From: Halichondria panicea | Taxonomy: Eukaryota; Porifera; Demospongiae; Suberitida; Halichondriidae | NCBI RefSeq assembly: GCF_963675165.1 | Contig: NC_087382.1 | Coordinates: 5,247,963-5,311,962 of the forward strand | Length of the DNA stretch: 64,000 bases | Direction: 5' to 3' | Part shown: in pieces, positions 8,996-63,726 of the stretch | Numbering within the stretch: position 1 is the first letter of the stretch | Layout: every line of letters starts with the position of its first letter | The notes under the pieces: model-generated | What the model was told of the DNA's origin: nothing | The model's database searches: none | Seen by the model: the letters and a program-made list of their open reading frames with translations, nothing else | Program-made: the position numbers and the translations under genes

Positions 8996-9002
8996 CTATG
9001 AG

Positions 9003-9561
9003 AGAAATGATTAAATATTGCACAACTATATAATTATTATAGCATGATAATTAGGCCAGACAAAATTTGATCATGGGTATATATCAATCTAGCAATGACA
9101 ATGAGTTTAATTATAAGAAACAATTGCTCAAAATAGCTATTCATGCAGTTTCATTAATGAGTTGAGGGTCTGTAGCAGCATACCGGGTAGGTGTAGAGAA
9201 TGCAAACGTGCTGCTATAATTTCAATTGTATGTGTGACGTCATAACATTATTTTAGAAGCTATAGTTGTGCTTGTTGAGCTTGGATTACAGTGCTGGAAA
9301 CTCGCCCATGCACTGTCTGTTGATCGTTTTATGGAAAATTTCAGCTATGTATTGGGTAGTCAACACCCACGGGGCTATGCTGAGCCATAGCAAACTACCT
9401 ACGGACTCCCAGCTACTGAGTTACAAGGAATTTTGTCTGGATTTCTGAAAGTTTTTTTCTAGTAGTGCCTATGGTGTATGGAAAGAGCTATGTAAATTTT
9501 CTTAGGATATTGTACAAACAGACTATATAACACGAATGTACAGCATGTTTCCGTTCCTCTT
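9003..9561. other. Non-coding stretch, probable intron of the Roc-COR gene
   Basis: No ORF, RNA gene or repeat is recognisable. If the candidate 5' exon at 12734-12881 is real, this belongs to a 3.7-kb intron of the minus-strand gene. Confidence 0.4.
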
Positions 9562-46500: not shown

Positions 46501-49500
46501 TTAGTCGATATTGTGCACAATTTCCTTAGGATTTAGCATTCAGACAATAATTATGATTGTACTGTACTCTATCTATTATGGATCAAAACCATGAGCTGGT
46601 TTTTTGCTAGCTTACTTTTGGGCTTGTTCAATGTTATAAAGAAACTTGCCTTTCGTACAGTCGTATTGGTCATAGAGAGCTCTAATTACATGTACACATG
46701 TATACCACACCCCCACCCACACACTACAGCTTCAGGGAGATAGTGGGTAAGAAAGTGGTGAGGGCGCTCAAGCTCAAGGACGACGGGATCAGTCACGCTT
46801 GTGTGGACTTCCTGTGTGCACTCATGCAACCCATGCACGACAACTTTGACATTCGTCAGGAACAAATGAACAAACGTTCCCTCCTCTCTTCAACCGGCTT
46901 CTTGGAGCTGCTGCTGGAACCTCTCAAACTCCACGTGGTATGTTGTGGTATCTACATACTGATAGCATGGAGGATACTTACATGTAGCTGCGTGCACATA
47001 CATTTGTACATGTAGCTGCTTTTCTGAGAATATTAATTGGTGCATGTACACTATGATAGCTGGAGAAAGTAAAAGTGTGTTTCACCAATCTCTCCACTCA
47101 CAGACTGGTTGTCACTATTGAAGCATTACATCATGCATGGCTTGTACCTATGTAACTGTACTGTCTATATTCCAGACAATAGCTCTAGTCGATAATCGAT
47201 CATCGTTGATGTTTGTTGTGTGTTATTATACACGTAGAGACTGGGAACTGGAGCTCTGATCATCAGCGCTGTACTGGACTTCTTCACATTTGCCATCTGT
47301 CCTCCATACAGGTACAGTATATACAGTGTGCATGTGCATGCAGTAAAAGAGAGTACATAGATTGCATATAATAAAAAATGGCAATGTGTGCAGTAGTAAT
47401 TGAAGTGAAAAGTAAAAGTATACCTAATTTGTACATTTAGTACGTACTACACACTAGAGTAAGATCTGTTGATCAAATTTAACTTGTCTGCATAGCGTAC
47501 GTACACATGTACACAAGTACACATGTATATCTGGTTTCAATGTTTGCGAATGACAATTTACAAGCCCTATTGCGTTTCTAACTACTGCAAATTGCCTGCA
47601 CATGCTCACTTTCTATTGCGATCTATGTGAAAGCTCGCAATTCACAATCAAAAGTTTACGGTCTACATGTTTTGTGCAGTGAGACAACGGATGGAGACAA
47701 ATTTGACCTCGTGTTGGAGTTGATCGCTGGGATGGGACGCGTCATCTTCAAGTTGTTCCAGCACCCGTCACTTGCCATTGTGAAGGCTGCAGGTCTCATC
47801 ATGAAGTCCATCATTGAGGTGAGGGGGTGGCTGTGTTGAGTGGGTAAAGAGTGTTAACTGAAGAAGTGAATTATTGGTGTACTTCTGATTTTACCGAGCA
47901 CTGAAATGATGTCTGTACTTTAACATGTAATAATGGAGTATGAATGAATGTATGAATCATAATTTGACAATCACCATTGAAGTACATGTACATGCATTTG
48001 TAGCTACCTAATGATGAGTTATGCTACAGTACATGTAGGTCGCAATGCATATATCACACCCACCATTACCCTCTGATAGGAAGGAGATGAGGAGACGGCC
48101 ACCAAGATGCAGGAGCTGGCTTTAGCGGAGGGTGCTCTCCCCCGCCACCTCCACACCTCCCTATTCACCTCTAGTGCCGACAACCGCCTACTCACTCATC
48201 GCCAGCTCAGCAGACATCTCGTCTCCCTGTGGATCACCGGCAACAAAACTTCCACTGAACTCATGCGAAGGATACTGGTCAGTAATATTACTCAGGGTTC
48301 TACATGTAGCTCAGGATACTGGATGGTTTGCTTAGGACACAGTCAATGATAATGCCTAAATGGTTATTTCAATGGTGCTGTACACAATTATGTTCAATGT
48401 ACTGTAGTCTTGTTTTTAACAGTAGAATAATTTGTTTTTACTGTCTAACTTTTGCGTCAGGTAAGCAAGGATTGTGGTGTCATACAAGTACCAGTATAGG
48501 TTTTTGCTATGATCTTACAAGTGCTATGTCGTAAGCATTCGCAGTAATACAGCTAGTACTCAACATGGTAGTGTACATAGTTCAGTGATCTAATACATGT
48601 GTGTGTGTGTACTGTATCTTATTGGCCTCGTCCTCGCAGCCACTGGGTCTGATGCAGTTCCTGGAGTCGGACGAGACCGTGTCAGACGATGAGATTGACC
48701 GTATGCACATCAGAGATAACCTCAAGGCTGTCACAGTGAGCTACAGCTTAGTTAGCTATTTATGTATTTATACAGGTAATAATAATATTCTCTGTGCATT
48801 AATTCAACTGCCATTTCATGTTAGTTATACATGTACACTGGCAAAGCACCATCAACAACCTACAGCTGTAACTAGTACTGAATTAGTACTTGCGGATTAT
48901 TAATTTTCGCATAAGGAAGGATTATAGTTCATTATGATCTGTTAATGGTATCATTAACTCGTGAATTTGTGCGGTTTTGTTATGAGGAGCTTTCATGAGT
49001 ACACACTTCCCATGATCACACACTACCACCCCAGACCATCTCCCGGCGTCGTATCGGTGTGTTGGAGGGTGCTCTGATCCACTGGCGGTCCAGGCTTCGC
49101 CCTAAACCACAGAAGGACCTGGCCAATCAGCGACCTGTCACACTGCGGAAGAGGCGAGAGAACGTCAAGAGTGAGGCTAACTGGAAATTATTCTACCACA
49201 AGTTTGCCTGCGACCACGCCACTTCCGCTCTCATCTGGAACTACAAGGTTAGGGGAGGGGCCTGCAATCCTGGGTTTCTGTACAATGAAGATAAAATAAT
49301 AGCTGTAATTATCCAGAACAATAATATTTGAAAGTTGTAGGATTGGAAACAAGAAAGCGGGAGAGCATAGCCTTTTTAACGTTGTGGTTCTCTCAGTGTT
49401 TCTGCAACTGAAACATTTGATGCACTCATTGCTTGTTGAGCATAATGAAACCTGTCTGTGTATTTGCAGGTCACCAAACTCTATACATGTGTTTCAACCT

Positions 49501-52500
49501 GTATTAGCAAGTCACCTAGTATTTATTACAGCCATTGTTAAATAGCCCTAGGGTTATCGCTAGAGCAGGGGTTTTTACATGTATGTGTATAGCAATCAAG
49601 ATACCAATCAAAATCATTTATACTTTAATTTGCCTCTTCTACCTGCAGACGAGAGAAGAGCTCAGGGAGGCACTCGAGAATGAGATACGATCTTTCACCG
49701 TTGATAAGGTTAGTTATATGTGACTCATATGTGATCGTTCAATGGTAATCACATGACTCAAACTGCAGGACCTGAGTGGGAAGTTAGAGATCTCCTGGAA
49801 TCACACCGAGTTCGAGGTCCGCTATGAGTGCCTCTCGGAGGAGATCAAAATAGGTACAGCTCACGTACACTTTGAATACCATAGTGCTAAAAAAGCACTG
49901 TCATGCATATGACTCGCCGAAGAATTAAACCTGCACCTGCTTGTGAAAACTGAGAGCAGTCCCATAATCTATGTGACCATCTGTTTTAGAGATTATAATT
50001 TTTTTGCATTATTTGCCCCCTCACACCTGATACACTAATTGGTTCTGACATGCATAAGCTGCCAATATGTCTATTGCAGGTAACTACTACCTCCGACTGC
50101 TACTGGACGAGGGAGGGGACACCAAGTTTGTGGACCCTCACGTGTTCTTTAATGACCTCTACCATCGGTTCCTCCTCTCACCCAAGCCAGCAATGAAGGC
50201 CATGTGTCTGCAGGCCATGGCCATTGTCTACGGACAATGCTACGAAGAGATTGGGCCATTCAACGACACTGAGTTTGTAGCGCGGAAACTGGAACAGGTG
50301 AGTGGGTGTGTATAATTGATGAAATAAGAGGTTAAACTGTATAATATAATATGACAATGAATCACATTTTGGGAGTGAATGTAGGTTTTACTATACTGGC
50401 CTTAACTCTTTAAAAACTTGGCGGATAGCTGCTCCTTATATTGCATGCAATACTTTCCTTTGGCGCCAGCTTTCGATTTTTGTCGATCGCTCATTAATTT
50501 AGCTAAAAGTTAAGTAAAATTGTGTGTGTTATATTAACATGCACGTGACTCAAATCACTTTCTCTAAACAAATGTTTGGGTAAGATTGTTAACATTCCCT
50601 GTGTGTATAGTCAGTCAGTTCATCTGAATGTAATCATACTGTTGGCTTTCAGTTACTTCCATCCCTTCATTCTCAACCTGGCTAGTCTGTTCATCATTGA
50701 ATACTTCGTACACCACATCGGACTGTACCTGTGTAGCATCATCACTCTGTGTAGTAGTAGCATAAACCGGGTTCTGCTTCATTTTAATAAGTGTCTCCAC
50801 TATCTCATAACCAGGAGTGGTACGCACACCATACAGTGGGTTAGGCTGTAGTGGTATTGCTTCATTTTCAAGGGTAGAGGCTTGTGATCTCACTTCCGAT
50901 ATTCTGGTATCTATAAGAGCGTTGTATATTCATTATGAGCCAATTTTTCATGAGTGTAGTTACATGGTACTAATTTTGGGCCAATATGCTTCATTGCAAT
51001 GATACAATGTTCACTTCATATACCTTATACCGGGTTTTGAATGCGAGAATCTGTCGATTACAAACGAAAGACTCACAAAAAAACAGTGTACGTTAGTTGA
51101 TTGGTTTACCTATAACGACGTTGTTGTCCTTGTTACCTCTTCTTTTGGTACGAACAGTGAGTGCAATGACCACAATAGTAACCAAGACGACAATCAACAA
51201 AGCTCCAACCACTCCCCCAACAATGCCACGGACTAGATCCGAGCTTACATCAAAGTCAGTATCTATGCATGGGACACAAATTGACACAAATTAAATTTCA
51301 AATTTGGTTATATACATGTATCACTCACCAGGCTCACAATTGGTGCCTGAGAATCCTGACAGACATGTAGTGCACCTGGTTGATATTTTTCGGCCCAGGA
51401 GACACACTGTACACCCACTGAGTCTATCGTAACCAGGGAGACAAGATGAGCATGTGGTGTTTAGATCGTAGTTAGCCACACACTCAGTGCAATTTGGATT
51501 AAAATTATCCAAGCAAGTTTGACAGAGTCTGGTTGGGTCCCCTCCTGGTAGAGCACACACACTGCAGTCTGTGTCAGTGAACCTGTCTGGTTGTAGGCAG
51601 ATGGAGCAGTTGGTGACTGGGTCTCTGTTGGGTAGGCAACTAGTACAGTCTGAGGTGATGTCCCAGCCTGGTAGACACTGGGTGCAGTCAGTAGAGGGAT
51701 CTCTGTTGGGTAGACACTGGGTGCAGTTGGTAGAGGGATCTCTGTTGGGTAGGCACTGGGTGCAGTTGGTAGAGGGATCTCTGTTGGGTAGACACTGGGT
51801 GCAGTTGGTAGAGGGATCTCTGTTGGGTAGGCACTGGGTGCAGTCGGTAGAGGGATCTCTGTTGGGTAGACACTGGGTGCAGTCGGTAGAGGGATCTCTG
51901 TTGGGTAGACACTGGGTGCAGTTGGTAGAGGGATCTCTGTTGGGTAGGCAACTAGTACAGTCCGAGATGATGTCCCAGCCTGGTAGACACTGGGTGCAGT
52001 CGGTAGAGGGATCTCTGTTGGGTAGACACTGGGTGCAGTTGGTAGAGGGATCTCTGTTGAGTAGGCAACTAGTACAGTCCGAGATGATGTCCCAGCCTGG
52101 TAGACACTGGGTGCAGTCGGTAGAGGGATCTCTGTTGGGTAGACACTGAATGCAGTCAGTAGAGGGATCTCTGTTGGGTAGACACTGGGTGCAGTTGGTA
52201 GAGGGATCTCTGTTGGGTAGGCAACTAGTACAGTCCGAGATGATGTCCCAGCCTGGTAGACACTGGGTGCAGTCGGTAGAGGGATCTCTGTTGGGTAGAC
52301 ACTGGGTGCAGTTGGTAGAGGGATCTCTGTTGAGTAGGCAACTAGTACAGTCCGAGATGATGTCCCAGCCTGGTAGACACTGGGTGCAGTCGGTAGAGGG
52401 ATCTCTGTTGGGTAGACACTGGGTGCAGTTGGTAGAAGGATCTCTGTTGGGTAGGCACTGGGTGCAGTTGGTAGAGGGATCTCTGTTGGGTAGGCACTGG

Positions 52501-55500
52501 GTGCAGTCGGTAGAGGGATCTCTGTTGGGTAGGCACTGGGTGCAGTCGGTAGAGGGGTCTCTGTTGGGTAGGCACTGGGTGCAGTTGGTAGAGGGATCTC
52601 TGTTGGGTAGGCACTGGATGCAGTCGGTAGAGGGATCTCTGTTGGGTAGGCACTGGGTGCAGTCGGTAGAGGGGTCTCTGTTGGGTAGACACTGAATGCA
52701 GTCAGTAGAGGGATCTCTGTTGGGTAGACACTGAGTGCAGTCGGTAGAGGGATCTCTGTTGGGTAGACACTGAGTGCAGGCGGTAGAGGGATCTCTGTTG
52801 GGTAGGCACTGTGTGCAGTCGGTAGAGGGATCTCTGTTGGGTAGGCACTGTGTGCAGTTGGTAGAGGGATCTCTGTTGGGTAGGCACTGGTTGCAGTCGG
52901 TAGAGGGATCTCTGTTGGGTAGGCATTGGGTGCAGTCGGTAGAGGGATCTCTGTTGGGTAAACACTGAGTGCAGTCGGTAGAGGGATCTCTGTTGGGTAG
53001 ACACTGAGTGCAGTTTGTTTGTGAGTCATAGAATTCCAACAAACATGATGTGCAGCCATCGAGAGGACTGAATGTAGAGTCCACGCATGATTCACAGTTA
53101 TCGGTTGTGTCATATTTGGTGTTAGTACAGGATGTACAGTTGGTGTTTGGGTCAAATGCATCTAATAAGCATGTAGAACATCCTGTAGCAATATTCAGGT
53201 TGTAGAGGCAGTCGTTACAGGCTACAAGAGATGAAGGGTCAAGCCGGTTGTCAATACACGTTATAGTACCATCAGCTTGACATATCGCCACTCGTGGATT
53301 GTTATAAAGTGTGGTCGAACAGCCATGCCCACAGAAACCAGGAGAGCACTCTACTCTGAAACTCATGGTCATGTGAGATATGTTGTGGAATCCAGTGAAC
53401 GTCATCTCCTCTGTGAAGTCTGCTCCAAGTTGGAGGTTATCCAGGTTAATCAACATACTGTCTATTATGTTCGGGAGTCCACTGTCCACGGCTTCTATGA
53501 AGAACTGTATTCTTCCCTACAATAATGTACAGTGCATCCAGCTTAGAGAGTAGATTACCACAAATTTGTGAGTAGCTGTACTTAAATGTAAATATCTTTC
53601 GATTGGAATATTTCTAAGAAATGATGTTAATACCAATGTGTAGGTGAATGACCAAACTACAACATACTCAAAAATGTTTCCATGGAAACATAAGATGGTG
53701 GGTTTGTGGTGATTAATAGAACAACAGCAAATTGTTATAGTGAGTACCCCCCTAGCTTGCATGTGGACTTACTGGCACAAACTCTAATCGGTTAGAGTAA
53801 TAAAACAGTAACCTTGTACAGCTAAGGTCCTAGACTTCATCACATAGTTGTTCAATGGTTTAGGTATCCTGACCATCTCTTTATGGGTCTTACATATGTT
53901 CACAGTGTCTATAATTCATGATTTACTGGTTTTCAGGTACACTTTTGGTTAGAGTAATAACTTTTAAAAAATTAATAGTTTAGCTTTCAAATTTCTGTAG
54001 TAAGTTTACAGATAAATGGGCTACATTTTGATACCAAGAATATCCTATATGCTTATTCCATTGCTGAGATAACACTGAAAAGCTACATAATTTACTATTT
54101 TCTACTGTTTTGATGACATCAAAACCACAAAAACCAATGACACTTTAAGGTTACGATGCAGTGTTCGCCCATGCAGTAATTATCAATAGTAAATCAAGCT
54201 TGTCTTGACTGTATACACTAGTCGTCATTTTATATGCTATATATTGCATGCTCTCTGCCAGTAAGGCAATTATCTATTTAAAGGAGGAAAGGGGCAGGGC
54301 GGCTCGAAACAATTTCTTCGAAACAATGAACAGTCATCGAGTTAGCTCGTATAGAAGTAGAAAAATATGGAAAAATAGCTGACTAGCTAGTAAACTATGG
54401 CATTTTTCTTCAGTTTGTAGATAGATAGGAGCAAGAACTCTTCGAGCCACCCTCAGGAATATCATAAACTGCTAGTAGGTCACTGTTTAGTTCTTGTTAG
54501 AGTCTTTCTTTGTCTAATATTTGACGACTAAAATCGGCAGTGACCACACGATCTTTGTGGTAAATTTTTGCCTTCTAGTTAGCGTACTGATAGCTAGCAA
54601 GCGCTGTAATAGTTACTTATGAGTAGTGCAACAGTATAGACACATAAAATAATAGAAACAATATCTTCCTTTCTCACAAAAACAAAAAATAAAAACTCAT
54701 GAATAATTCATGAGCAAACACGTCATCAAAAAGGTAGAATATGTAGGTTTTCAGTGTTATCTCAACAATGGAATAAGAGTAGAGGATGTTCTTGGTATCA
54801 AAATTTAGCCCATTTATTTGTAAACTTACCAGAGAAGTTTTAAAGCTAAGCTATAAAATTTTCAGAAGATATTACTCTAACCAAAAGTGTACCTAAAAAC
54901 CAGTAAATCATGAATTATAAACACTCTGAACATAATTATGCAAGACCCATAAAGGGATGGTCAGGATACTTAAACCATTGAACAATTATTTGATGAAGTC
55001 TAGGACCTTAGCTGTACAAGATTACTGTTTTATTATATATATATACTCTAACCGATTACCTACTATAACAATTTGTTGTTGTTCTATTAATCACCACAAA
55101 CTCACCATCTTATGTTTCCATGGAAACTTTTTGAGTATGATGTAGCTTATTCATTCACCTACACATTGGTATTAACACCATTTCTTAGAAATGTTTCAAT
55201 CGAAAGATATTTACATTTAAGTACAGCTACTCACAAATTTGTGGTAATCTACTCTCTAAGCTGGATGCACTGTACATGCGTGGATAGTGGGTAAGCAGTA
55301 CCATTTTAAAAACTTACGGTCCATATGGATATACCCCTTGTAACTGTTAGAGGATTAGCATATACCCCGAGGAGACCCATTGGACCTTGACCAAATGTTG
55401 TACTAATTTCACTGAGTGGGCAAGTATTGGGGGACACTTGACAATCAGTGAAGTCGTAATTTGAGTTAGGTCTAGTATTCAATGATGCACCGAATGGTCT

Positions 55501-58500
55501 GATAGTCCAACGGAACCTGGTGTCACATCTCTCCTCTCCTGTGTTGTTACAGTTGCTAGATTTGTAAGGAAGGTCATCACAGCACACTGGTACAGTTCCT
55601 TCAGGGTTACTTGTATTGAGTGGTCTATCACATTCTGCACACAGTCCAGTTGGGTTGGTATAGTTGACTAGGTTTACACTCAGCATGTACTCACATCTTA
55701 TCTGTATCTGTACACATTTTAATTTTAATGGCTTTCATTCTTTCACATTGGAAAACTCACTGTGAGGATGCTTGCACAAATTAAGACTGCCAGACTTTTC
55801 TGTTTGTTCTCCATTCTGAATTTCTTGTTTAAAATCTGCGTGCTAGTTTAGTTTACATGACATGTATGTGTGTGTTCTCTCTATAGCTGTGATTTCAGTA
55901 TCCCACTTAGCAGTGTGTTTATTCTATAAGTGAGGGTGTGTTAATTGGTTGTGTAAATTTTCATTGTGGGATATTTACTCTATACGTTCACAATGGTGGC
56001 TACAAAATAAGATTACAAAGACCTGCGTATGCTAGTATTTATATGACATCATGATCATTGCCAGATTGCAAAAGTTACATGTAGATATACAATATAGCAA
56101 CAGTTAAATTTTCTGCTCATTTAGCTCATTCGCATGCAAATATACCTTAAGGTTACTATGTAGTAATTTTAGCATTTTCAGGTTTTCTCTGTGTTTATAG
56201 GGTTCCTAATTTTGGCCGATTTGCAGTAAATTCAATATTTGTATGTAGTTCTTGCTAAAAATTTACGATCTTTCATAATAATTATAGCTAAATCTAAGCT
56301 TGCGATCAGCATCTCCATGTCCTATAGAAAATCCAAAACATATGCGTTGGCTGCAAAAACCCTTAAACATGGATATAACTCAAATCATTGCTGTACAAAC
56401 GTTTGGTAACATTGTTAACATTCCCTATGTGTAGTCAGCAGTTCATATCTGAATGTAATCATACTGTTGACTCTCAGTTACTTCCATCCCTTCATTCTCA
56501 ACCTGGCTAGTCTGTTCATCATTGAATACTTCGTACACCACATCGGACTGTGTAGCATCACTCTGTGTAGTAGCATCATCACTCTGTGTAGTAGCATCAC
56601 TCTGTATAGTAGCATCATAAACCGGGTTCTGTTTCATTTTAATAGGTTTCTCCACTATCTCATATTCAGCAGTGTTGTCAACATTAGTACTGACACAATG
56701 CAGTGGGTTGGGCTGTAGTGGTATAGCTTCACTTTCAAGGGTTGGGGCTTGTGATCTCTCTCCTAGTGCCAATGTGACAGATTCTGTAATTGTGTATATA
56801 GTTGTTATTGTGGTAGTAAAAACTGCTTATCTAGAATTATGTGTGTTCACCTTCCTTACTGATGCATGGCATGTGTGAATTTGAAACTCAATTTTAGATA
56901 CGCGTGTATATATTGATGAGCCATGCACAAGTTAAAATGAACTTTACCTGAGACTTTACTATCGTTGTTGCCTCTTCTCCGGAGTAGAATCACCACAATC
57001 GTTGCCAGGACAACAGTAAACACAGCTCCGACCACTCCGCCAATGATACCAGGCAGACACGATGAGCATGTAGTGCTTAGATCATAGTTAGCCACACACT
57101 CAGTGGCATTAGGGTTAAAACTATCCATGCAAGTTTGACAGAGTCTTGCTGTGTCCCCTCCAGGTAGACAACTAGTGCAGTCAGAGGTGATGTCCCAGCC
57201 TGGTAGACAATGGGTGCAGTTGGTTGCTGGGTCGTAGAATTTCAATAAGCATGTCGAACAGCTTTTTGTTGTGTCCACGTTGTAGAGGCAGTCGTTAGAG
57301 GCTACTAGAGGTGAAGGGTTAAATCGTTTATCGTTACACGTTATAGTGCCATCAGCTTGGCATGTCGCCACTAGGGGATTGTTCTGAAGTGTAGTCGAAC
57401 AGCCATGCCCACAGAAACCAGGAGAGCACTCGACTCTGAAACTCATGGTCATGTGAGATATGTTGTGGAATCCAGTGAACGTCATCTCCTCTGTGAAGTT
57501 TGCTCCAAGTTGGAGGTTGTCCAGGTTAATCAACAGACTGTCTATTATGTTCGGGAGTCCACTGTCCACAGCTTCTATGAAGAACTGTATTCGGCCCTAT
57601 TCAAAGCATTTATAAATGTTAGGTGCTGTATAACAAAAACGAACTTACTACCCAAAAAAATTGTTGGTTTGAGACAAGTAGAGGATTGGGTGTTACCCCG
57701 AGGATTGCTGCTGGACCTTGACTGAAGGTTGTACTAATTTCACTGAGTGGGCAAGTGCTGGGGGACAGGGCACAATCAGTGAAGTAGTAATTTGAGTTAG
57801 GTCTAGTCTCCAATGATGTACCGAATGGTCTGATGGTCCAACGGAACCTGGTGTCACATCTCTCCTCTCCTGTGTTGTCACAGTTTCCAGATTTGTAAGG
57901 AAATTCATCACAACACACTGGTACAGTTTCTTCAGGGTTACTTGTATTGAGTGATCTATCACATTCTGCACACAGTCCAGTTGGGTTGGTATAGTCGACT
58001 AGGTTTACACTCAGCATGTATTCACATCTTATCTGCACACGTGCATATAATTTTTGTAAAGGTAGTCTACATATGCTTTGAATCTCACTGAAATGACACT
58101 TGTGCAGATGAAGACCACTAAACTTTGCAGTGTATATCTCATTTTTCTCTGTGTAGAAAGTGTCACACTCTAACTCTAGTTTTATATGCTAAAGTCTATT
58201 TGTGTTGAGTTCGACCCAGGAAGTTATGTGGTCAATTATGGCTTCATTTATGCTTTATTTGGTGGACATGTATGCCTGGGACTTCTACATGTAAATGCTA
58301 ACTTTTAGCTGGTTGGAGCTTACCAGCTCTACAGCATATAGATAGAAGCGCTTTTTAACAAGGAATCCAATGGTATATGAAACTTTGAATAATTTCAGTA
58401 AAGTATGACAAAGTTATGACAACTTTATGAAGGTCAAACTCAACACAATAGACTTTAGTCTATGCATGTGCTTGTGACTTTAGTCTATGCATGTGCTTGT

Positions 58501-61500
58501 GACTTCAGCATTGGCTTTTCTATGGTACTCAATATCCATAATTGCATTAGCAGGCCTTTCATTTAAGAGCATGAGGAGGGTCTGTGACATCATAATTAGG
58601 CTTTTAATTCTATGGTACTCTATAAGTTATATTTGTTGTTACAGCTTTCAATTATGTATACATTGTGAATCTCACATGACACTCACATGACAGTGTGTGG
58701 ACAAGACGGAGAGGGACCGCCTCCTGATGTTCATTGACAAGCTCCTCCATCACAAGACCAACGTCAAGTTGTTCCTGGATGCCAACGGTATCCGAGTGTT
58801 GGTGGACCTGGTCACTCTGGCTCACCTGCACACCTCACGGGCACACGTACCATTACAGAGTCTGGCCATAGAAGCATCACCTGATCTGGACAGGTAGGCG
58901 TGCCATTGGTTTTGAACTATACAGTGCACATGCATGTATACGGTGTATACATGTATGCAGTGTGTATATGTCTGTGTACATGTCTATATACATTTATTTG
59001 GAGTCCTTAAAATAAGAGTGCTTTAGAGTGTATTTTAGCATTGCTTGAGGCAATGTGTGTGACCTTTCAATCACATCCCTTCGTCTAGGCATGCATACAT
59101 GTAGCCTCGATCCCAGGCCGATCCGTCTCCAATTGAACGCTAGGTCGCCTACTAGGCCTGGTATTGATTGTATTTGGGCGTGATCTGGGCGTGGTTTTTT
59201 AATAATTGACTCTGTGGTACAACAAAAAATGAATCCTCCAACAGTGGTCTTCAACAACAGCCTCTGGGGCAGTATACAGCAGGAAATACTTCCCAGAAGA
59301 CACTTCTTTGGCAGTGGCAACCAAATCTTTGTCGATTCCTTTATTGCTACTGAGGATGGCAGCAGAAACACCTCTATTGTTTAGACTCCTGCCTGGTCAA
59401 TCATGAGTCTCATGATGAGAGATACAAGGGGAGAGACAATTAACAAGAACAATACTTTTGTCAACAGGAGGAGCCTTGGTCCTACCTAGCTTGTAGTCCA
59501 TTAAAAAGGGTAGCAACTGATATAGCAGAGAGACTTGCCATATCCCGTTGGGAACCAGATAAACACGTCCCTTCCCTCAAACAGGAGCTTGAGAGCCTGG
59601 GCCTGTTCTGCCATGAGAGTGAGGCCATCTTGCTTCAAACAAGACAACGCGTTGCATGCCATAGCTAGCTAGCTATAAATTGAGAACATGACACGGAGCT
59701 ACATTACTGTAAGTTTTACGGGAGTAAAATGCCTCTACGTACACCTTTAGTATTACAGAAAAAAAGCAGGAAACAAAATGTGAAGAATCTCTGCTTTAGT
59801 TTCCGGTTCCTGCCACGCCCAGATACAATCAATACCAGGCCGTATTTTTCAACTTCGTTCTATTAAAAAAAAATCGGCCTGGGACCGAGGCTAGCATACA
59901 TGCAGAATTCCCTGAACTAGTTTTGGCACTACCGTATAGAGGGAAATTTTTGCGGACCACGACCCTGTACAAATGTTCGCTATTGCTTCAGAGCCCTCAG
60001 CAGAAATGTTTGTGGGTTCTAATACTCGCGTTTCATTTCTAGGAAACCACACCCACCAATAGTTTTGCATGTGAAATACCAGTGTGTGGGAGTTTATCAT
60101 TTTCGCATCTTCTGTCTGCCCTCGAAAAACACCCAATTTTGCACCTCACGAAAATGTCCCGCTGTACGGTATTCCAAACTGAAAATCCATTCATTGTGTA
60201 TTCGTTTGTTTATGAAAGTAGTACTCAATGAGTGGGTTTGAACATACTTGTATATGATTAGCGAGGATAACCGATCTGTGTCCATTTTTAAGTTGCTTTT
60301 CTCCGCGTTCCCCTTGTGCAGGGACTCAGAGAAGGAGTGGTACTACACTGGCAAGGACAAGGAGAGACAAGGGCCCTACTCATTCAAGGAGATGAGGGAC
60401 CTCTGGACTGAGCAAGAGATACACCAACGATCCAGGTATGTACATGTAGGAGGATATTTTTACACACAGGCATCACTATTTCTACCAATTGTTCTAGCAT
60501 GTACCACAAAAATTTATACCCACGAATTTAATATCGCATGCATGCATGCCTGCTGCAGAAAGGCTGCTACTCCGCAAAAACCTTTCTAACGGTCCATCCG
60601 CGAAAGTTTATACCCTCGAAATATACCCGCTATACGGTACATGTACATATAGGAGGGCATTCAACAATTTTTACACACAGGCAGAGTTTAATTTGTAACT
60701 ATTCTACTAATTGTTATCCTTATAACCTCTCCTGGGTGGGTGGCTTTATTACATGTAGTAAATTTCAGTCAAGTACAGTACCGTATAGTGGGTATGTTTT
60801 GACAGCTAAAATTTTCACGGTTTTCACCAAGCATGCTCAAAATAATTATTATACACAAAAATTAATGGCCAATCTGCAAAAAAATTAGACCCTCGAAAAG
60901 TACCTGCTATACTGACAATGTGTGTACATGTATGGATGTTAGTGCAGTGTTTCCTTCCCTGGGTGCACCCTGTTTGATTAGCTAATTGAATTTGGGAATC
61001 TGTACAAGTCTTTCATGTTGTGTATACAGTGATAAAAGGGGCTGTGCAGATTCTCTATATAAAGATAATTAGTGGTCATGTATTAACCTGTTCCCAGCTG
61101 GCCATATCCTGTATGGTCTATATAGCTGTAGCTATCGTGTAGCGGGTAATTTTTGTTGGTACAAATTTTGTACGAACTACCCAAATATTCGTACAGCTCA
61201 GGATAAGGACGTTGAACCTATTGTGCCAGAAAATGTAATTTCTTACTGATACGAAAAATACAAAAATTTCCACCATACAAAAATAACCCACTATCTCTAT
61301 AGAAGGCAGCAAAAACGAAAAGATGATGTGAGGCAATATAGTAAAAAAAGAAATGGTCGTATAGTTAAGAAAAAGAAAGGCCTGGTTGGGAGAGTCACCT
61401 GATCCACATAATATAAACATGTGCGATATGTACATGTACATGTAGCTCACAATCGTGACGTAGAATATTCTCCCACGCATTAAGACACTGCCAAGAGTCC

Positions 61501-61636
61501 AAGCTCAGTGCAGTATTGCCAGAAACCAGTGTGGCCATGCAGCTTGGTGCCAGGGTAGCTTAGTTTCTAAAATTACATCTTTATGAGTATAATATTGCCA
61601 CCGCTTTCCACTCCCCCCCACCACACACTGTTATGG

Positions 61637-61686
<50 letters not shown>

Positions 61687-63726
61687 GCACGCACTTCTCC
61701 AGATGCTGGGCTCAAGGTATGGACGGTTGGAAGCCGGTGGAGCAAATAGCACAGCTCAAGTGGAGCACGCTGGCCACGGGGTCGCCTCTGCTTAACGAGT
61801 CCGAGATGTCCTCCCTCATTCTGAGTATGTTCACTAGGATGTGCAAGTTCTACCCCTCCAGGTAATTAAGAGTGTGTACACTGTGTACAGTTATATTGTA
61901 TTTGTATGATTGTGTATGTTTGGTTGGCTCCCTACATGTACAAGTGTATGTTCAAACTACATGTACATGCATGTATACAACGTACTATCACTATGCGGTG
62001 TATGGTTATCAGTCGGCTAGTAGTCGGAACCTTGATGCTTCATTTAGGAACAAAATTAATGTGCATACCTTGAGTTGTGAAAAAATGTGTTTGAATTCTG
62101 TACAATACATGTACGTGTGCAATTAATGTATGAGGGCTTAGTCATCTGCACATTCAGAGCACATGATTACATACTATCATTGTTGTTAAACTATCCCCCC
62201 AGGGACGGGGATGGTGCTGTGGTGAGACCACTCCCTCGTGCCAAACGCTTCCTCTCGGAGGCTAACACTCTCCCACACATCGTACAGCTCTTGTTGACCT
62301 TTGACCCCATTCTAGTCGAGCGGGTAGTCATTCTCATCAACATCATACTCGAGGACAACCCCAACCTCTCGCGTGGTTTCTCCACTGGTGTGTTCTTCTT
62401 CATCATGATGTACACCGGCTCCAACATTCTCCCCATTGCCAAGTTCTTGAAGTGCTCCCACACCAAGCAGTCCTTCCGGCCGGATGAGGTGTGTGGTGGG
62501 TGGGTGTGTGTGTGGGTGTATGTTTAGGGGAATTCCCATATAGAAATGACAACCTTGTTATGTGGCTATTGCATGCAAGGTTGTTACAACCATGTGTAAC
62601 CATGGGTTTAGATGACAACCTTGTAACAAGCTTGATAAACTAATATTATGATCTAATATGAGCTTAATACATACATACATGTGCGTGTACGTTAGAAATT
62701 GAGTGGATCATGGTTGTGTGTGTATAACAAACTTCTTATAATCATTGTAAACTGTACTGTAGAATACATTATAGCTGGTAATTTTCGTGGGGCAAAAGTC
62801 ACTAAATATTGCTCAACCACGAATGTTTTGCCCCCCGAAAATTACTTGCTATACGGTATATACAGTACTATACACATTGAGTCGTACTAACACTCACTCT
62901 CCCCCCCCCCCCCCTCTTCGTAGTCTGCCACCTCTGACATCATGCTGCGTAGCATCCTGGGACAGCTGATGCCTGAGGCCATGGTCTGCTTCCTGGAGAA
63001 TTATGGTGAGTGTGTGTTTTTCTGTACACTAGCACAGCAACTATTAATTTCTTTTTATACTTATATGCCATCAAAAAATGATTGGGAATGTTGATTTGTG
63101 CTCCATTGATACTGTGACTAACCACACCCCTACCCTCCATATCACTACAGCCCCCGAGAAGTTCAGTGAGATATTCCTAGGGGAGTTTGACACCCCTGAG
63201 GCCATCTGGAGCAGTGAGATGCGACAACTGATGATCCAGAAGATAGCTGCTCACATTGCCGACTTCACTCCTCGCCTGCTTAGCAACACCAGAGCTACTT
63301 ACCAGGTGGGTGGTTACACAAAAATATCTATATCTATATAGCGAACACCCTTGTGCAGATCAAAATGGCCGTATAAATAAAAAGGTGGCTAGCTAGTACA
63401 GTGAGTGTACATGTACATGTTGAAACACATGCTATGGAGACTTTAAGACCCATTAACCTGGCTGTATTATATAGAGAGTTACCTGCTTACAGGGTGACCA
63501 CAATAAGCAGTCTCACTAATTAAGTTGGATATACGTATGTACATTTCGTACTACCTTGTCATTCATGTGTCTGTACTAATAAACCACACCCCCTCGACAC
63601 ATGCAGTACTGTGCAATGCCAGTAGTCCAGTATCCTCAACTGGAGAACGAGTTGTTCTGCAACATCTACTACCTTCGCCACTTGTGTGACACTGTCAAGT
63701 TCCCCGACTGGCCCATCAAAGAACCA
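40526..63726 (+). CDS. DNAJC13: DNAJC13 / RME-8 homologue, 5' complete, 3' truncated by window (29 exons seen)
   Basis: Exons: 40526-40584, 40850-40925, 41645-41794, 42227-42271, 42642-42698, 42814-42900, 43133-43186, 43447-43529, 43860-43983, 44437-44532, 44957-45048, 45601-45850, 46313-46485, 46730-46937, 47238-47311, 47680-47818, 48080-48277, 48640-48735, 49035-49247, 49649-49708, 49769-49853, 50080-50297, 58694-58893, 60322-60435, 61703-61861, 62203-62488, 62924-63005, 63151-63305, 63607-63726. All are GT-AG and in frame, giving about 1,251 residues of a protein that is roughly 2,240 aa in vertebrates. Landmarks are [48 protein letters not shown], a GYF-like patch ([14 protein letters not shown], about residue 960), [32 protein letters not shown] and [14 protein letters not shown]. 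The J domain normally follows just downstream of the last motif. RME-8 is a peripheral endosomal co-chaperone acting with Hsc70 and the WASH/retromer machinery. The 8.4-kb intron after exon 22 holds two antisense genes. Confidence 0.96.
41076..41207. mobile_element. 132-bp Mutator-like MITE with 9-bp TSD
   Basis: The ends are CAGAGGAGGTCCGACATG and its complement, and nearly the whole element folds back on itself. The flanks are identical 9-mers, GTGTTGTGT (41067-41075 and 41208-41216). The first 15 bases match the TIR of the 2.08-kb element at 1802, so the two belong to one family. It lies in DNAJC13 intron 2. Confidence 0.88.
43640..43775. repeat. Dispersed intronic repeat in DNAJC13
   Basis: Same family as the 77-bp unit: GGTGGCCTGCAAACACAAGC, then ACACGTGTTAC, then a region ending GGGAGGCCACAATAGACGG. 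A shorter copy is at about 42285-42385. Confidence 0.55.
44681..44895. mobile_element. 215-bp MITE, CAGGGTGTCATA ends, 5-bp TSD
   Basis: The ends CAGGGTGTCATAC and TATATGACACCCTG are inverted. ACATG flanks both sides (44676-44680 and 44896-44900). The interior has G-rich and C-rich arms and two copies of a ~26-bp TAGCTGGCAATTTTACATAC unit. It lies in a DNAJC13 intron between exons 10 and 11. Confidence 0.7.
50615..55814 (-). CDS. Delta-like (MNNL/DSL) membrane protein with 36 tandem 13-residue cysteine repeats, 1,026 aa
   Basis: Exons: 55814-55761 (start; signal peptide [18 protein letters not shown]), 55707-55318, 53516-51329, 51262-51110, 50910-50615. They total 3,081 bp, in frame. Exon 2 resembles the Notch-ligand N-terminal MNNL domain: '[12 protein letters not shown]', 'VPVCCD', '[14 protein letters not shown]'. 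Exon 3 starts with the '[10 protein letters not shown] ... [10 protein letters not shown]' strand and a DSL-like '[19 protein letters not shown] ... CQADGTITC'. Where known Delta/Jagged proteins carry EGF repeats, this one has 36 units of the type [13 protein letters not shown] (51605-53015), 31 with NRDP and 5 with GWDI. Less regular CxxC units lie on both sides. Exon 4 holds one transmembrane helix followed by TKRRG. The tail has two NPxY motifs (NPLY, NPVY) and ends YDYIQMN, which includes a YxxM motif. The gene is nested antisense in a DNAJC13 intron. Role as a Notch ligand is inferred; no canonical DSL or EGF is complete. Confidence 0.8.
51605..53015. repeat. 39-bp tandem coding repeat, 36 units with higher-order structure
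   Basis: Each 39-bp unit encodes 13 residues. Units alternate between NRDPSTD and NRDPSTN forms, and between GWDI and NRDP. In the 3' half, a block of GWDI-NRDP-NRDP(-NRDP) recurs four times, a higher-order repeat of 117-156 bp. Units are nearly identical at DNA level, which signals recent unequal exchange or gene conversion. Because 39 is divisible by three, several other frames also stay open on both strands; those ORFs are artefacts. Confidence 0.93.
53530..55272. mobile_element. Long foldback element, 1,743 bp, ~600-bp arms, TA TSD
   Basis: The ends CAGTGCATCCAGCTTAGAGA and its complement are flanked by TA (53528-53529, 55273-55274). Inverted pairing can be followed inward to about 54150 on the left and 54700 on the right, for example GTACAGCTAAGGTCCTAGAC versus GTCTAGGACCTTAGCTGTAC. 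The central ~550 bp is unpaired and shows no transposase. It fills intron 2 of the 1,026-aa Delta-like gene; the matching intron of the paralogue is 52 bp and lacks it, so insertion followed the duplication. Related to the element at 34394. Confidence 0.88.
56443..58142 (-). CDS. Delta-like (MNNL/DSL) membrane protein, short-stalk paralogue, 475 aa
   Basis: Exons: 58142-58089 (start; signal peptide [18 protein letters not shown]), 58032-57649, 57596-56948, 56783-56443. They total 1,428 bp, in frame. The MNNL-like exon ('[15 protein letters not shown]', '[14 protein letters not shown]') and DSL-like segment ('[19 protein letters not shown]') are nearly the same as in the neighbour. The stalk is reduced to a handful of CxxC units, including a single GWDITSD unit. 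It runs straight into the transmembrane helix within exon 3, so the separate TM exon of the neighbour is absent. The tail has NPLH in place of NPLY, keeps NPVY, has additional TTQSD-type repeats, and ends YDYIQI, so the YxxM motif is lost. Non-coding flanks after the stop codon are also similar, supporting tandem duplication. Confidence 0.82.
59102..59893. mobile_element. 792-bp Mutator-like element with 9-bp TSD carrying a RecQ-helicase fragment
   Basis: The inverted ends start TAGCCTCG(A/G)TCCCAGGCC and extend about 85 bp. GCATACATG is repeated exactly on both sides (59093-59101 and 59894-59902). It sits in DNAJC13 intron 23. The interior has helicase-like sequence on the minus strand and no transposase. 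Confidence 0.87.
59225..59650 (-). pseudogene. RecQ-like helicase fragment, frame-broken
   Basis: Read on the minus strand, the sequence gives '[19 protein letters not shown]', then the Walker A region [11 protein letters not shown]. After frame changes come 'VDKSIVLV', 'VSPLVSL', 'GVSAAILSS' and '[13 protein letters not shown]'. This is the order of the N-terminal SF2 helicase motifs (I, Ia) of RecQ proteins. Frameshifts and an internal stop show it is not functional as read. Motif II (DEXH) onward is missing. Confidence 0.7.
59932..60169. mobile_element. Palindromic MITE, CCGTATAG family, TA TSD
   Basis: The ends CCGTATAGAGGGAAATTTT and AAAATGTCCCGCTGTACGG are inverted, and TA flanks both sides. 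It belongs to the same broad family as the copy at 13440, but with a different interior. Confidence 0.7.
60500..60915. mobile_element. Two adjacent CCGTATAG-family MITEs in DNAJC13 intron 24
   Basis: One ends GTTTATACCCTCGAAATATA-CCCGCTATACGG at about 60637. The next starts CCGTATAGTGGGTATG at 60781 and ends near 60913. Further diverged members follow at about 61133-61310 and 62772-62856 (GGTAATTTTCGTGGGGCAAA ... GAAAATTACTTGCTATACGG). Confidence 0.55.
61638..61682. repeat. (AC)n microsatellite next to a DNAJC13 acceptor
   Basis: About 22 AC dinucleotides followed by a short ACGC run, ending about 20 bp before the acceptor of exon 25 (61703). It falls in the place of the polypyrimidine tract and branch region. 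Confidence 0.9.
63376..63512. repeat. Dispersed intronic repeat in DNAJC13 (last intron seen)
   Basis: It has the same order as the 77-bp unit: CATGTTGAAACACATGCTATGG, CCCATTAACCTGGCTGTATTA, then GAGAGTTACCTGCTTACAGGG. Confidence 0.6.

What the first reader, a model, noticed from the sequence alone, without database searches (positions are those of the whole stretch)
50615..55814. Notch-ligand-like ectodomain with EGF repeats replaced by 36 copies of a 13-residue CxxC repeat
Seen: signal peptide, MNNL-like exon, DSL-like segment, a 36-unit [13 protein letters not shown] array, one TM helix and a tyrosine-rich tail in a single in-frame five-exon model. Known: Delta/Jagged proteins have MNNL-DSL-EGF(n)-TM. 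Inference: this is a divergent sponge DSL-ligand family in which the stalk is a rapidly evolving cysteine repeat, possibly for self/non-self or adhesion rather than classic Notch signalling. I know of no described ligand with this stalk.
Basis: partly seen in the sequence, partly recalled or inferred. Interest (0 to 1): 0.88.

Follow-up and report, generated by a model that had tools for sequence, protein, structure and literature searches.

The report
Sponge receptors with Notch-ligand heads
A breadcrumb-sponge chromosome carries a pair from a family of about forty cell-surface proteins that descend from Notch ligands, have lost features that known ligands use to grip Notch, stand on a stalk of a short cysteine repeat, and vary in exposed loops in a way that suggests they recognise something, perhaps microbes or other sponges.

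Summary
On the minus strand a five-exon GT-AG model (55814-50615) encodes 1,024 aa: signal peptide, MNNL-like exon, DSL-like segment, exactly 36 in-register 13-residue units (48 CxxC in the stalk), one TM helix and a tail with two NPxY. A tandem paralogue (58142-56443) has the same head and tail but five stalk CxxC. Pfam MNNL/DSL do not hit the family directly, but descent from Notch ligands is well supported: profile-profile score 56.1 (null maximum 28.0), matches to this sponge's own Delta exons, a shared intron position (7 of 7 loci checked), Foldseek ranks 1-19 all Notch ligands. There are 43 loci, 14 of them starting beside Delta genes; the stalk repeat is nearly private to them. Every member examined has lost two cysteines that shape the Notch-binding sites. 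The beta1-2 loop is hypervariable (omega 1.26, region chosen after the fact), and its type is uncorrelated with the rest of the head, as if exchanged like a cassette. Most likely these are Delta-derived diversified recognition receptors, not Notch ligands. Function is inferred; expression, polymorphism and binding were not testable.

The parts
55761..55814 (-). gene A exon 1: start codon and signal peptide-like stretch ([18 protein letters not shown])
   Evidence: GTGAGT donor; gene B has the same exon 1 layout
55318..55701 (-). gene A exon 2: first part of the MNNL/C2-like head
   Evidence: 78.9% identical to gene B
55588..55629 (-). hypervariable loop 1 (beta1-2 loop) between CAEC and VCC
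   Evidence: highest pooled omega of exon 2 windows over all pairs, uncorrelated with six other segments
53361..53516 (-). gene A exon 3, first part: rest of the MNNL/C2-like head
   Evidence: matches Delta exons from residue 1 of exon 3
53217..53360 (-). degenerate DSL-like segment ([14 protein letters not shown]...ITC...VAC)
51336..53219 (-). whole CxxC stalk (48 CxxC; spacing 13 forty times, 14 six times, 11 once)
51609..53012 (-). 36-unit in-register 13-residue array ([13 protein letters not shown] type)
51329..53516 (-). gene A exon 3 (rest of head, DSL-like segment, stalk)
51110..51262 (-). gene A exon 4; transmembrane helix at 51153-51227
   Evidence: hydrophobic run
50615..50910 (-). 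gene A exon 5: cytoplasmic tail with NPLY, NPVY and YDYIQMN, stop codon
53525..55277 (.). long near-palindrome filling most of gene A intron 2
   Evidence: gene B's same intron is only 52 nt
58089..58142 (-). gene B exon 1 (signal peptide-like)
57649..58032 (-). gene B exon 2 (head)
56948..57596 (-). gene B exon 3: rest of head, short stalk (5 CxxC), TM in the same exon
56443..56783 (-). gene B last exon: tail
   Evidence: aligned with gene A tail

Best explanation
Gene A and gene B belong to a family of about 43 loci for single-pass surface proteins of the demosponge Halichondria panicea that arose from Delta-type Notch ligands. The N-terminal head keeps the C2 (MNNL) fold and a shrunken DSL domain. 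It has lost the strand-2 cysteine that steadies the C2 Notch-contact loop, and the third DSL cysteine with the RPRDDxFGH-type loop, so it probably no longer binds Notch in the known way. In place of an EGF stalk it has an iterated CxxC module that looks like the C-terminal segment of the sponge's own DSL domains. The stalk holds the head away from the membrane at a distance set by copy number (3 to 48 CxxC in 15 members). The apical beta1-2 loop of the C2 head varies as a cassette among paralogues while most of the scaffold is under purifying selection, the pattern expected of a recognition surface. I propose that the head recognises a variable partner (microbial surface, allogeneic or dying cell, or a partner head on a neighbouring cell) and that the tail passes this on through NPxY and other tyrosine motifs by PTB/SH2 adaptors and endocytosis. 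Shown: gene model, homology, family size and location, loss of cysteines, loop variability. Inferred: no Notch binding, origin of the stalk from the DSL end, cassette exchange, recognition role, tail signalling.
For: Gene model and paralogue. Host: contig C15 of the window's assembly is 5,981,790 bp, the length of the H. panicea contig of the named relatives, and 9 of 13 such proteins match a C15 locus 90 of 90 residues over the stretch tested. Homology: hhalign score 56.1, E 5.3e-8 over 137 collinear columns, against a maximum of 28.0 in 60 column shuffles and 22.9 in 60 cysteine-fixed shuffles. Gene B's head matches Delta-type exons of this genome on C16 (E 4.1e-5 twice, 4.6e-4) and C14 (1.6e-4, 4.2e-4); all five of these loci hold an MNNL exon over the Pfam cut-off and four of the five also a DSL exon. 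Exon 3 of gene A aligns to Delta DSL exons from its first residue, and in 7 of 7 Delta-type loci checked an AG acceptor stands directly before that residue. Foldseek rows 1-19 of 210 are all Notch ligands, best E 1.0e-5. Family: 43 loci, 41 on C15. The cluster at 2.19-2.31 Mb begins about 5 kb from the Delta gene at 2.185 Mb, with another at 2.178 Mb. One clade, 100/100, with 12 members used. The stalk is found, among printed rows, only in these clusters except two stop-filled places on C12. Lost cysteines: 28 of 28 and 27 of 27 exons. Loop 1: pooled omega 1.26 against 0.35 for the rest of exon 2; Mantel r -0.08 to 0.12, p 0.10 to 0.80, with six other segments, while 13 of the 15 pairs among those six correlate at p < 0.05 (27 sequences). 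DSL-end origin of the unit: the C14 Delta DSL end is the best of 98 distinct segments against a stalk matrix, the C15 2.185 Mb one fourth, the C17 one eleventh.
Against: Function is not shown by any experiment. Pfam MNNL and DSL match neither genes A and B nor any of 25 relatives. The AF2 model is poor (mean pLDDT 45.7), and in the structural second look general C2 domains rank level with the Notch ligands. Omega was computed by a simple counting method and the loop was named after its variability was seen; another short segment at the exon end gives 1.19 and the length-variable loop 2 only 0.31. With the 35 closest pairs (dS < 0.15) whole exon 2 is at 0.86, loop 1 at 1.67, and other windows are higher (2.38). 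Zero correlation could come partly from fast change or misalignment instead of exchange. Whole-exon dN/dS medians are below 1 (0.51 and 0.33). At least one locus (L005) has a broken exon 3 frame, so not all 43 need be intact. The sister relation to other sponge MNNL proteins is weak (80/85, not starred). Genes A and B themselves were not found among predicted proteins, so their expression is unknown.
Confidence: 0.6

Rival explanations
1. They are still Notch-pathway ligands, or decoys and cis-inhibitors of Notch, with an unusual stalk and relaxed binding-site chemistry.
For: Clear descent from Delta; one cluster lies beside canonical Deltas. The Amphimedon paper says that binding sites of bilaterian DSL domains are not conserved in that sponge's Deltas either (PMC3482393, passages).
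Against: The strand-2 Cys and the third DSL Cys are kept in 6 of 6 sponge Deltas and 6 of 6 bilaterian ligands aligned and lost in the family members examined. 43 loci face three LNR matches at two places. No EGF repeats above cut-off were found, though the first ones are part of the usual binding region.
Confidence: 0.13
2. They are mainly adhesion molecules: heads pair with each other or with extracellular matrix, and copy number of the stalk sets the gap between cells.
For: Stalk length runs from 3 to 48 CxxC among 15 members; one TM and a tail with adaptor-type motifs. A review argues for an old adhesive role of Notch family members (PMC4810162, passages).
Against: Does not by itself predict a hypervariable, independently distributed loop or a second class of tail of 235-383 residues with 14-24 tyrosines.
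Confidence: 0.2
3. They are engulfment or scavenger receptors working like CED-1/Draper/MEGF10 or SCARF1.
For: Cysteine-rich stalk, one TM, at least one NPxY in the tail of 13 of 14 members with a TM found, of 15 looked at; source names 'multiple epidermal growth factor-like domains protein 10' and 'scavenger receptor class F' on P0005 and P0008, probably automatic labels.
Against: No EMI or EGF domain above cut-off in the members scanned; the head is of Notch-ligand type instead.
Confidence: 0.2
4. Gene A is a decaying copy whose array is neutral satellite expansion inside a dead gene.
For: 36 near-identical units; a long intron palindrome that gene B lacks; not found as a predicted protein.
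Against: 1,024 codons open across five exons; 72 of 72 array Cys kept with excess synonymous change; dN/dS between A and B 0.69 in exon 2, 0.22 in exon 3N and 0.57 in the tail.
Confidence: 0.07
5. No relation to Notch ligands: a cysteine-rich surface family that only looks similar.
For: No direct Pfam match and no significant PDB sequence match (best E 0.68).
Against: Profile-profile score far above shuffled controls, shared intron position, bridging sequences with Pfam hits, fold match.
Confidence: 0.02

Closest known systems
Delta/Jagged/Serrate Notch ligands (DSL proteins), including the five Amphimedon queenslandica Deltas
   Same: Signal peptide, C2 (MNNL) head followed by DSL, one TM helix; shared intron position with Deltas of the same genome
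   Different: No EGF repeats found; CxxC stalk; strand-2 and third DSL cysteines lost; YYG replaced by FCG; RPRDDxFGH-type loop lost; 43 loci with a hypervariable loop
MNNL-degenerate DSL-EGF proteins of the same genome (C7:3.78 Mb, C12:1.82 Mb, C14:3.64 Mb)
   Same: Shortened DSL (third DSL Cys also missing), MNNL head; weakly supported as sisters (80/85)
   Different: They keep EGF repeats and the strand-2 Cys; the CxxC family has neither
CED-1/Draper/MEGF10 and SCARF1
   Same: Cysteine-rich ectodomain, one TM, NPxY tail; two database names point there
   Different: No EMI or EGF domain above cut-off; Notch-ligand type head
CxxC-repeat surface proteins of protists (VSP-like names; P0027)
   Same: CxxC units of about 13 residues
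   Different: P0027 matched residues 1-330 of gene A at E 9.8e-7, 41% over 26% of the query; read by eye it has CxxC runs but no such head. Likely convergent (inference)
Pattern-recognition repertoires (SRCR, NLR, CTLD, GPCR) of H. panicea (PMC8242945)
   Same: Large receptor sets in the same species
   Different: That survey picked receptors by Pfam domains; MNNL and DSL are not among those named in the passages I saw

Membership tests
Canonical Notch ligands (Delta/Jagged) | MNNL domain by Pfam PF07657 | tested here: not met
   No match in genes A, B or 25 relatives; by coordinates none of the 58 PF07657 places in the genome is a family locus
Canonical Notch ligands (Delta/Jagged) | N-terminal C2/MNNL homology by profile-profile, bridging sequence and fold | tested here: met
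   (fold model itself poor; general C2 domains rank level)
Canonical Notch ligands (Delta/Jagged) | DSL domain with six conserved cysteines and YYG motif (definition as in PMC2770060, passages) | tested here: not met
   Third Cys absent and FCG in place of YYG in 27 of 27 exons; no PF01414 hit; still homologous
Canonical Notch ligands (Delta/Jagged) | EGF repeats after DSL | tested here: not met
   No EGF above cut-off; but AmqDelta4 is also reported without EGF (PMC3482393, passages)
Canonical Notch ligands (Delta/Jagged) | Strand-2 cysteine that ties the Notch-contact loop (site 1) | tested here: not met
   Lost in 28 of 28 exons, kept in 6 of 6 sponge Deltas and 6 of 6 ligands aligned
Canonical Notch ligands (Delta/Jagged) | Type I membrane protein | tested here: met
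   Signal peptide-like exon 1 and one hydrophobic run, by sequence only
Canonical Notch ligands (Delta/Jagged) | Binds and activates Notch | not testable with these tools
   needs binding assay
CED-1/Draper/MEGF10 engulfment receptors | EMI domain and EGF-type repeats | tested here: not met
   No EMI or EGF match above cut-off; feature list recalled
CED-1/Draper/MEGF10 engulfment receptors | NPxY tail motif | tested here: met
   13 of 14 members with a TM found, of 15 looked at; feature recalled
Giardia VSP proteins | Very short conserved cytoplasmic end after the TM (recalled) | tested here: not met
   Tails of 100-383 aa in 14 members
Allorecognition or immune receptors | High polymorphism between individuals at a locus controlling recognition | not testable with these tools
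   One reference genome only; paralogue diversity seen

The most novel reading that the evidence does not exclude
The C15 clusters and the C6 pair are a sponge self/non-self (or microbe) recognition complex built from Notch-ligand heads: a C2 scaffold whose apical loop is exchanged between tandem genes as a cassette, held on a glycosylated CxxC rod of variable length, with two kinds of tyrosine tails for signalling. It would be a recognition system that recruited the Notch-ligand fold.
Probability: 0.3. Interest if true: 0.92.

Novelty: new variant of a known kind. Interest (0 to 1): 0.72.

Why it matters
Sponges distinguish self from non-self with high specificity, and a paper held here says an underlying polymorphic genetic system is implied (PMC5450542, abstract, passages); to my knowledge the genes remain open. 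This family is not matched by the Pfam MNNL and DSL models, so domain-based surveys can miss it. It shows a Notch-ligand scaffold turned into a large tandem family with features of a recognition repertoire, and suggests how a new stalk module can be born from the end of a DSL domain. The 43 loci give a short list of genes for polymorphism and grafting tests.

Tried and rejected
Direct Pfam and PDB sequence searches found nothing significant for the head; the PAS_4 (E 5.2e-6) and IS66 matches in the array exon I take for repeat artefacts. The AF2 model of P0013 was poor; its Foldseek result is used only as support, because VIA-align ranks other C2 domains level with Notch ligands. A second AF2 job on the stalk failed and the tool was then off, so the stalk fold is unknown. 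A first hhalign control script timed out without output; the repeat used 60 shuffles per test. Positive selection over the whole head was considered and rejected: dN/dS medians are below 1; in the loop it is suggestive only. A mis-joined gene was rejected because gene B and other loci repeat the head-stalk order. The alternative frame of 566 aa is a by-product of the 39-nt unit. One search compared a relative with an alignment that contains it and says nothing new. For the locus count 85 of the 97 rows were used; the 12 dropped are seven outside C15 and the window and five short pieces on C15. The script printed 44 loci, 42 with both halves; the two single ones are the two halves of gene A, parted by its long intron, hence 43. 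The codon work used 27 fetched family loci plus gene A from the window (gene B enters as L001), not all 43; one exon 3 with a stop (L005) was dropped.

No paper on this family was seen in the library searches. That covers open-licence PMC papers only, so it is not proof of absence.


Full report
What is there. On the minus strand of the window, 55814 to 50615, five exons with GT-AG introns join into a 3,075-nt CDS, 1,024 codons and a stop. The protein has an 18-residue hydrophobic start, a head of about 230 residues, 36 in-register 13-residue CxxC units flanked by degenerate ones (48 CxxC in the stalk), one TM helix and a 112-residue tail with NPLY and NPVY. The array behaves as coding sequence: all 72 cysteines are kept while their codons vary, and synonymous change is denser than nonsynonymous. 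A second gene, B, 58142 to 56443, has the same head, TM and tail but five stalk CxxC; its TM lies in the same exon as the stalk.

Setting. On the plus strand an RME-8_N exon lies at 48999-49328 (Pfam E 4.4e-20), and the two halves of a GYF_2 domain lie at 60242-60586 and 61593-61862 (E 1.9e-6 and 6.2e-6). RME-8/DNAJC13 proteins carry a GYF_2 domain after this N-terminal part (recalled). So genes A and B seem to lie, antisense, inside an intron of RME-8. The other 41 family loci are on C15, so the pair probably came from there (inference).

Where it comes from. The window lies in a 131-Mb, 39-contig assembly. Its contig C15 has the same length, 5,981,790 bp, as the Halichondria panicea contig that carries the nearest named relatives. 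Nine of 13 of those proteins match a C15 locus in 90 of 90 residues tested. Thirteen other database relatives (P0012, P0014-P0025) are 59-81% identical to their nearest member over 84-241 columns and come from unnamed contigs, so the family probably exists in other sponges; their hosts are not known.

Is the head a Notch-ligand head? Single-sequence profile searches say no: neither Pfam MNNL nor DSL matches genes A, B or 25 relatives. Four other lines say yes. First, a profile of 16 family heads against seven ligand heads gives an hhalign score of 56.1 (E 5.3e-8, 137 collinear columns). Sixty column shuffles reach at most 28.0, sixty with cysteines held in place at most 22.9, the reversed profile 16.9. 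The MNNL part alone scores 39.0 (null maximum 28.5) and the DSL part 28.3 (null maximum 24.6). Second, gene B's head matches, with E-values for the whole genome, exons of this sponge's own Delta-like genes: E 1.5e-7 on C7, 2.3e-5 on C12, 4.1e-5 twice and 4.6e-4 on C16, 1.6e-4 and 4.2e-4 on C14. The two C14 and three C16 loci hold an MNNL exon over the Pfam cut-off, and four of the five a DSL exon too. The C7 and C12 places themselves are not in the MNNL list, though a tandem neighbour 4 kb away on C12 is. Third, exon 3 of gene A aligns with Delta DSL exons on C14, C15 and C16 from its first residue, and in 7 of 7 Delta-type loci checked an AG acceptor stands directly before that residue, so the intron sits at the same place. 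Fourth, with a poor AF2 model (mean pLDDT 45.7) of a full-length paralogue, Foldseek still puts Notch ligands in rows 1-19 of 210 (best E 1.0e-5); a second aligner ranks them level with other C2 domains.

What has changed. In 28 of 28 second exons the strand-2 cysteine (CLKEYQ in JAG1) is replaced, and in 27 of 27 third exons the third DSL cysteine is absent and YYG reads FCG. Both cysteines are present in the six sponge Deltas and six bilaterian ligands aligned. A structural paper describes the strand 2-3 loop, tied to strand 2 by a disulphide, as Notch-binding site 1 and the DSL domain as site 2 (PMC5538765, passages). The loss of both supports, but does not prove, that canonical Notch binding is gone. 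The genome search found three LNR matches at two places against 43 family loci.

The family. Forty-three loci were counted: 14, 10, 2, 14 and 1 in five places on C15 and two in the window (85 of 97 rows used). At least one, L005, has a broken exon 3 frame. The 2.19-2.31 Mb cluster starts about 5 kb from a Delta gene at 2.185 Mb, with another at 2.178 Mb. Another DSL gene lies at 1.34 Mb, past the 1.26-1.32 Mb cluster. Twelve members tested form one clade (100/100), with MNNL proteins that keep EGF repeats as weakly supported sisters (80/85). A genome search with the stalk gave 153 matches, of which the last few were not printed; the rows printed lie in these clusters except two places on C12 broken by six stops each. 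Among 14 members with a TM found, two tail types exist: 100-124 residues ending in YDY[IV]Q plus one or two residues, and 235-383 residues with 14-24 tyrosines.

Origin of the stalk. Three canonical Deltas of this genome end their DSL domain with a stretch like the stalk unit (...[12 protein letters not shown]...GFNNTSTNCTQC...GYTDESTNCVQC); the other three aligned do not. Against a matrix built from 127 distinct stalk units these three rank 1, 4 and 11 of 98 distinct segments in 27 fetched loci, all six frames. I infer that the stalk grew by iteration of the DSL end. Rank 11 is not impressive by itself.

Variation. Pairwise dN/dS medians are 0.51 (exon 2, 378 pairs) and 0.33 (exon 3 head part, 351 pairs). 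The 16-column loop between CAEC and VCC, which aligns with the strand 1-2 loop of the C2 domain, has pooled omega 1.26 against 0.35 for the rest of exon 2; a segment at the exon end has 1.19 and the length-variable loop 2 has 0.31. The loop is the top window of 126 over all pairs. With the 35 closest pairs it stands at 1.67, whole exon 2 at 0.86, and other windows score higher (2.38). The loop falls into a few types (xxPLNTSxPxxT, xxPLSxVASADQL, QTRLINxTSADQ, very short). Its type does not follow the rest of the gene: Mantel r from -0.08 to 0.12, p from 0.10 to 0.80, with six other segments, whereas 13 of the 15 pairs among those six correlate at p < 0.05 (r up to 0.68, 27 sequences). This fits exchange between paralogues or repeated selection for the same types; fast change and misalignment could add to it. 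In bilaterian ligands the corresponding loop is among the variable ones at the putative lipid-binding apex (PMC5538765, passages).

How it most likely works. A C2 head with an exchangeable apical loop, on a cysteine-rich stalk of variable length with 1-13 NC[ST] sites in 14 members and 15 in gene A, reads a partner on another surface. The tail's NPxY and, by eye, YxxM/V-like motifs could recruit PTB/SH2 adaptors. The partner is unknown: microbe, allogeneic sponge cell, dying cell or another head. I give the general reading 0.6 and the allorecognition or immune complex 0.3.

Known or new. The domain types are known; a Notch-ligand head without EGF on a CxxC stalk, in a large tandem family with a shuffled loop, was not seen in the papers searched. 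The Amphimedon paper reports five Deltas, one without EGF, and an MNLL domain detectable by software in only one (PMC3482393, passages), so divergence of sponge heads is known. The immune survey of H. panicea picked receptors by Pfam domains that, in the passages seen, do not include MNNL or DSL (PMC8242945). I rate it a new variant of a known kind.

Noticed in passing
window 53525-55277: Intron 2 of gene A is 1,801 nt and mostly filled by a near-palindrome (four main arm pairs of 76-207 nt, 88-95% complementary, 626 nt between the innermost arms); the same intron of gene B is 52 nt. Looks like a fold-back element.
   Followed up: partly
window about 48999-61862, + strand: RME-8_N (48999-49328) and a split GYF_2 domain (60242-60586, 61593-61862) on the opposite strand suggest that genes A and B lie inside an intron of RME-8/DNAJC13.
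   Followed up: partly
G000 C12:1.81-1.87, C14:5.64-5.73, C6:3.97-4.03, C2:1.44-1.54 and 2.04-2.08 Mb: The genome has 58 MNNL-type places (39 over cut-off) and 33 DSL places (29 over cut-off) besides the CxxC family: a broad expansion with EGF stalks, no-EGF MNNL-DSL-TM genes and tandem DSL exons.
   Followed up: partly
G000 C4:5.457 and 5.594 Mb (L050): Four DSL matches in a row in one open frame, in two copies about 137 kb apart.
   Followed up: no
P0027 (1,536 aa, unnamed source): A protein with long runs of similar 13-residue CxxC units (CLPNYDIDKDCSEC) and, by eye, a protease-like C-terminal part; the stalk type may have arisen more than once.
   Followed up: partly
window 6843-9050, - strand: An open frame of 736 codons without a Pfam match at E 0.001.
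   Followed up: no
G000 C12:5748427 and C12:5814720: Two stop-filled stretches resembling the stalk (six TAG each), possibly chance or decayed copies.
   Followed up: no
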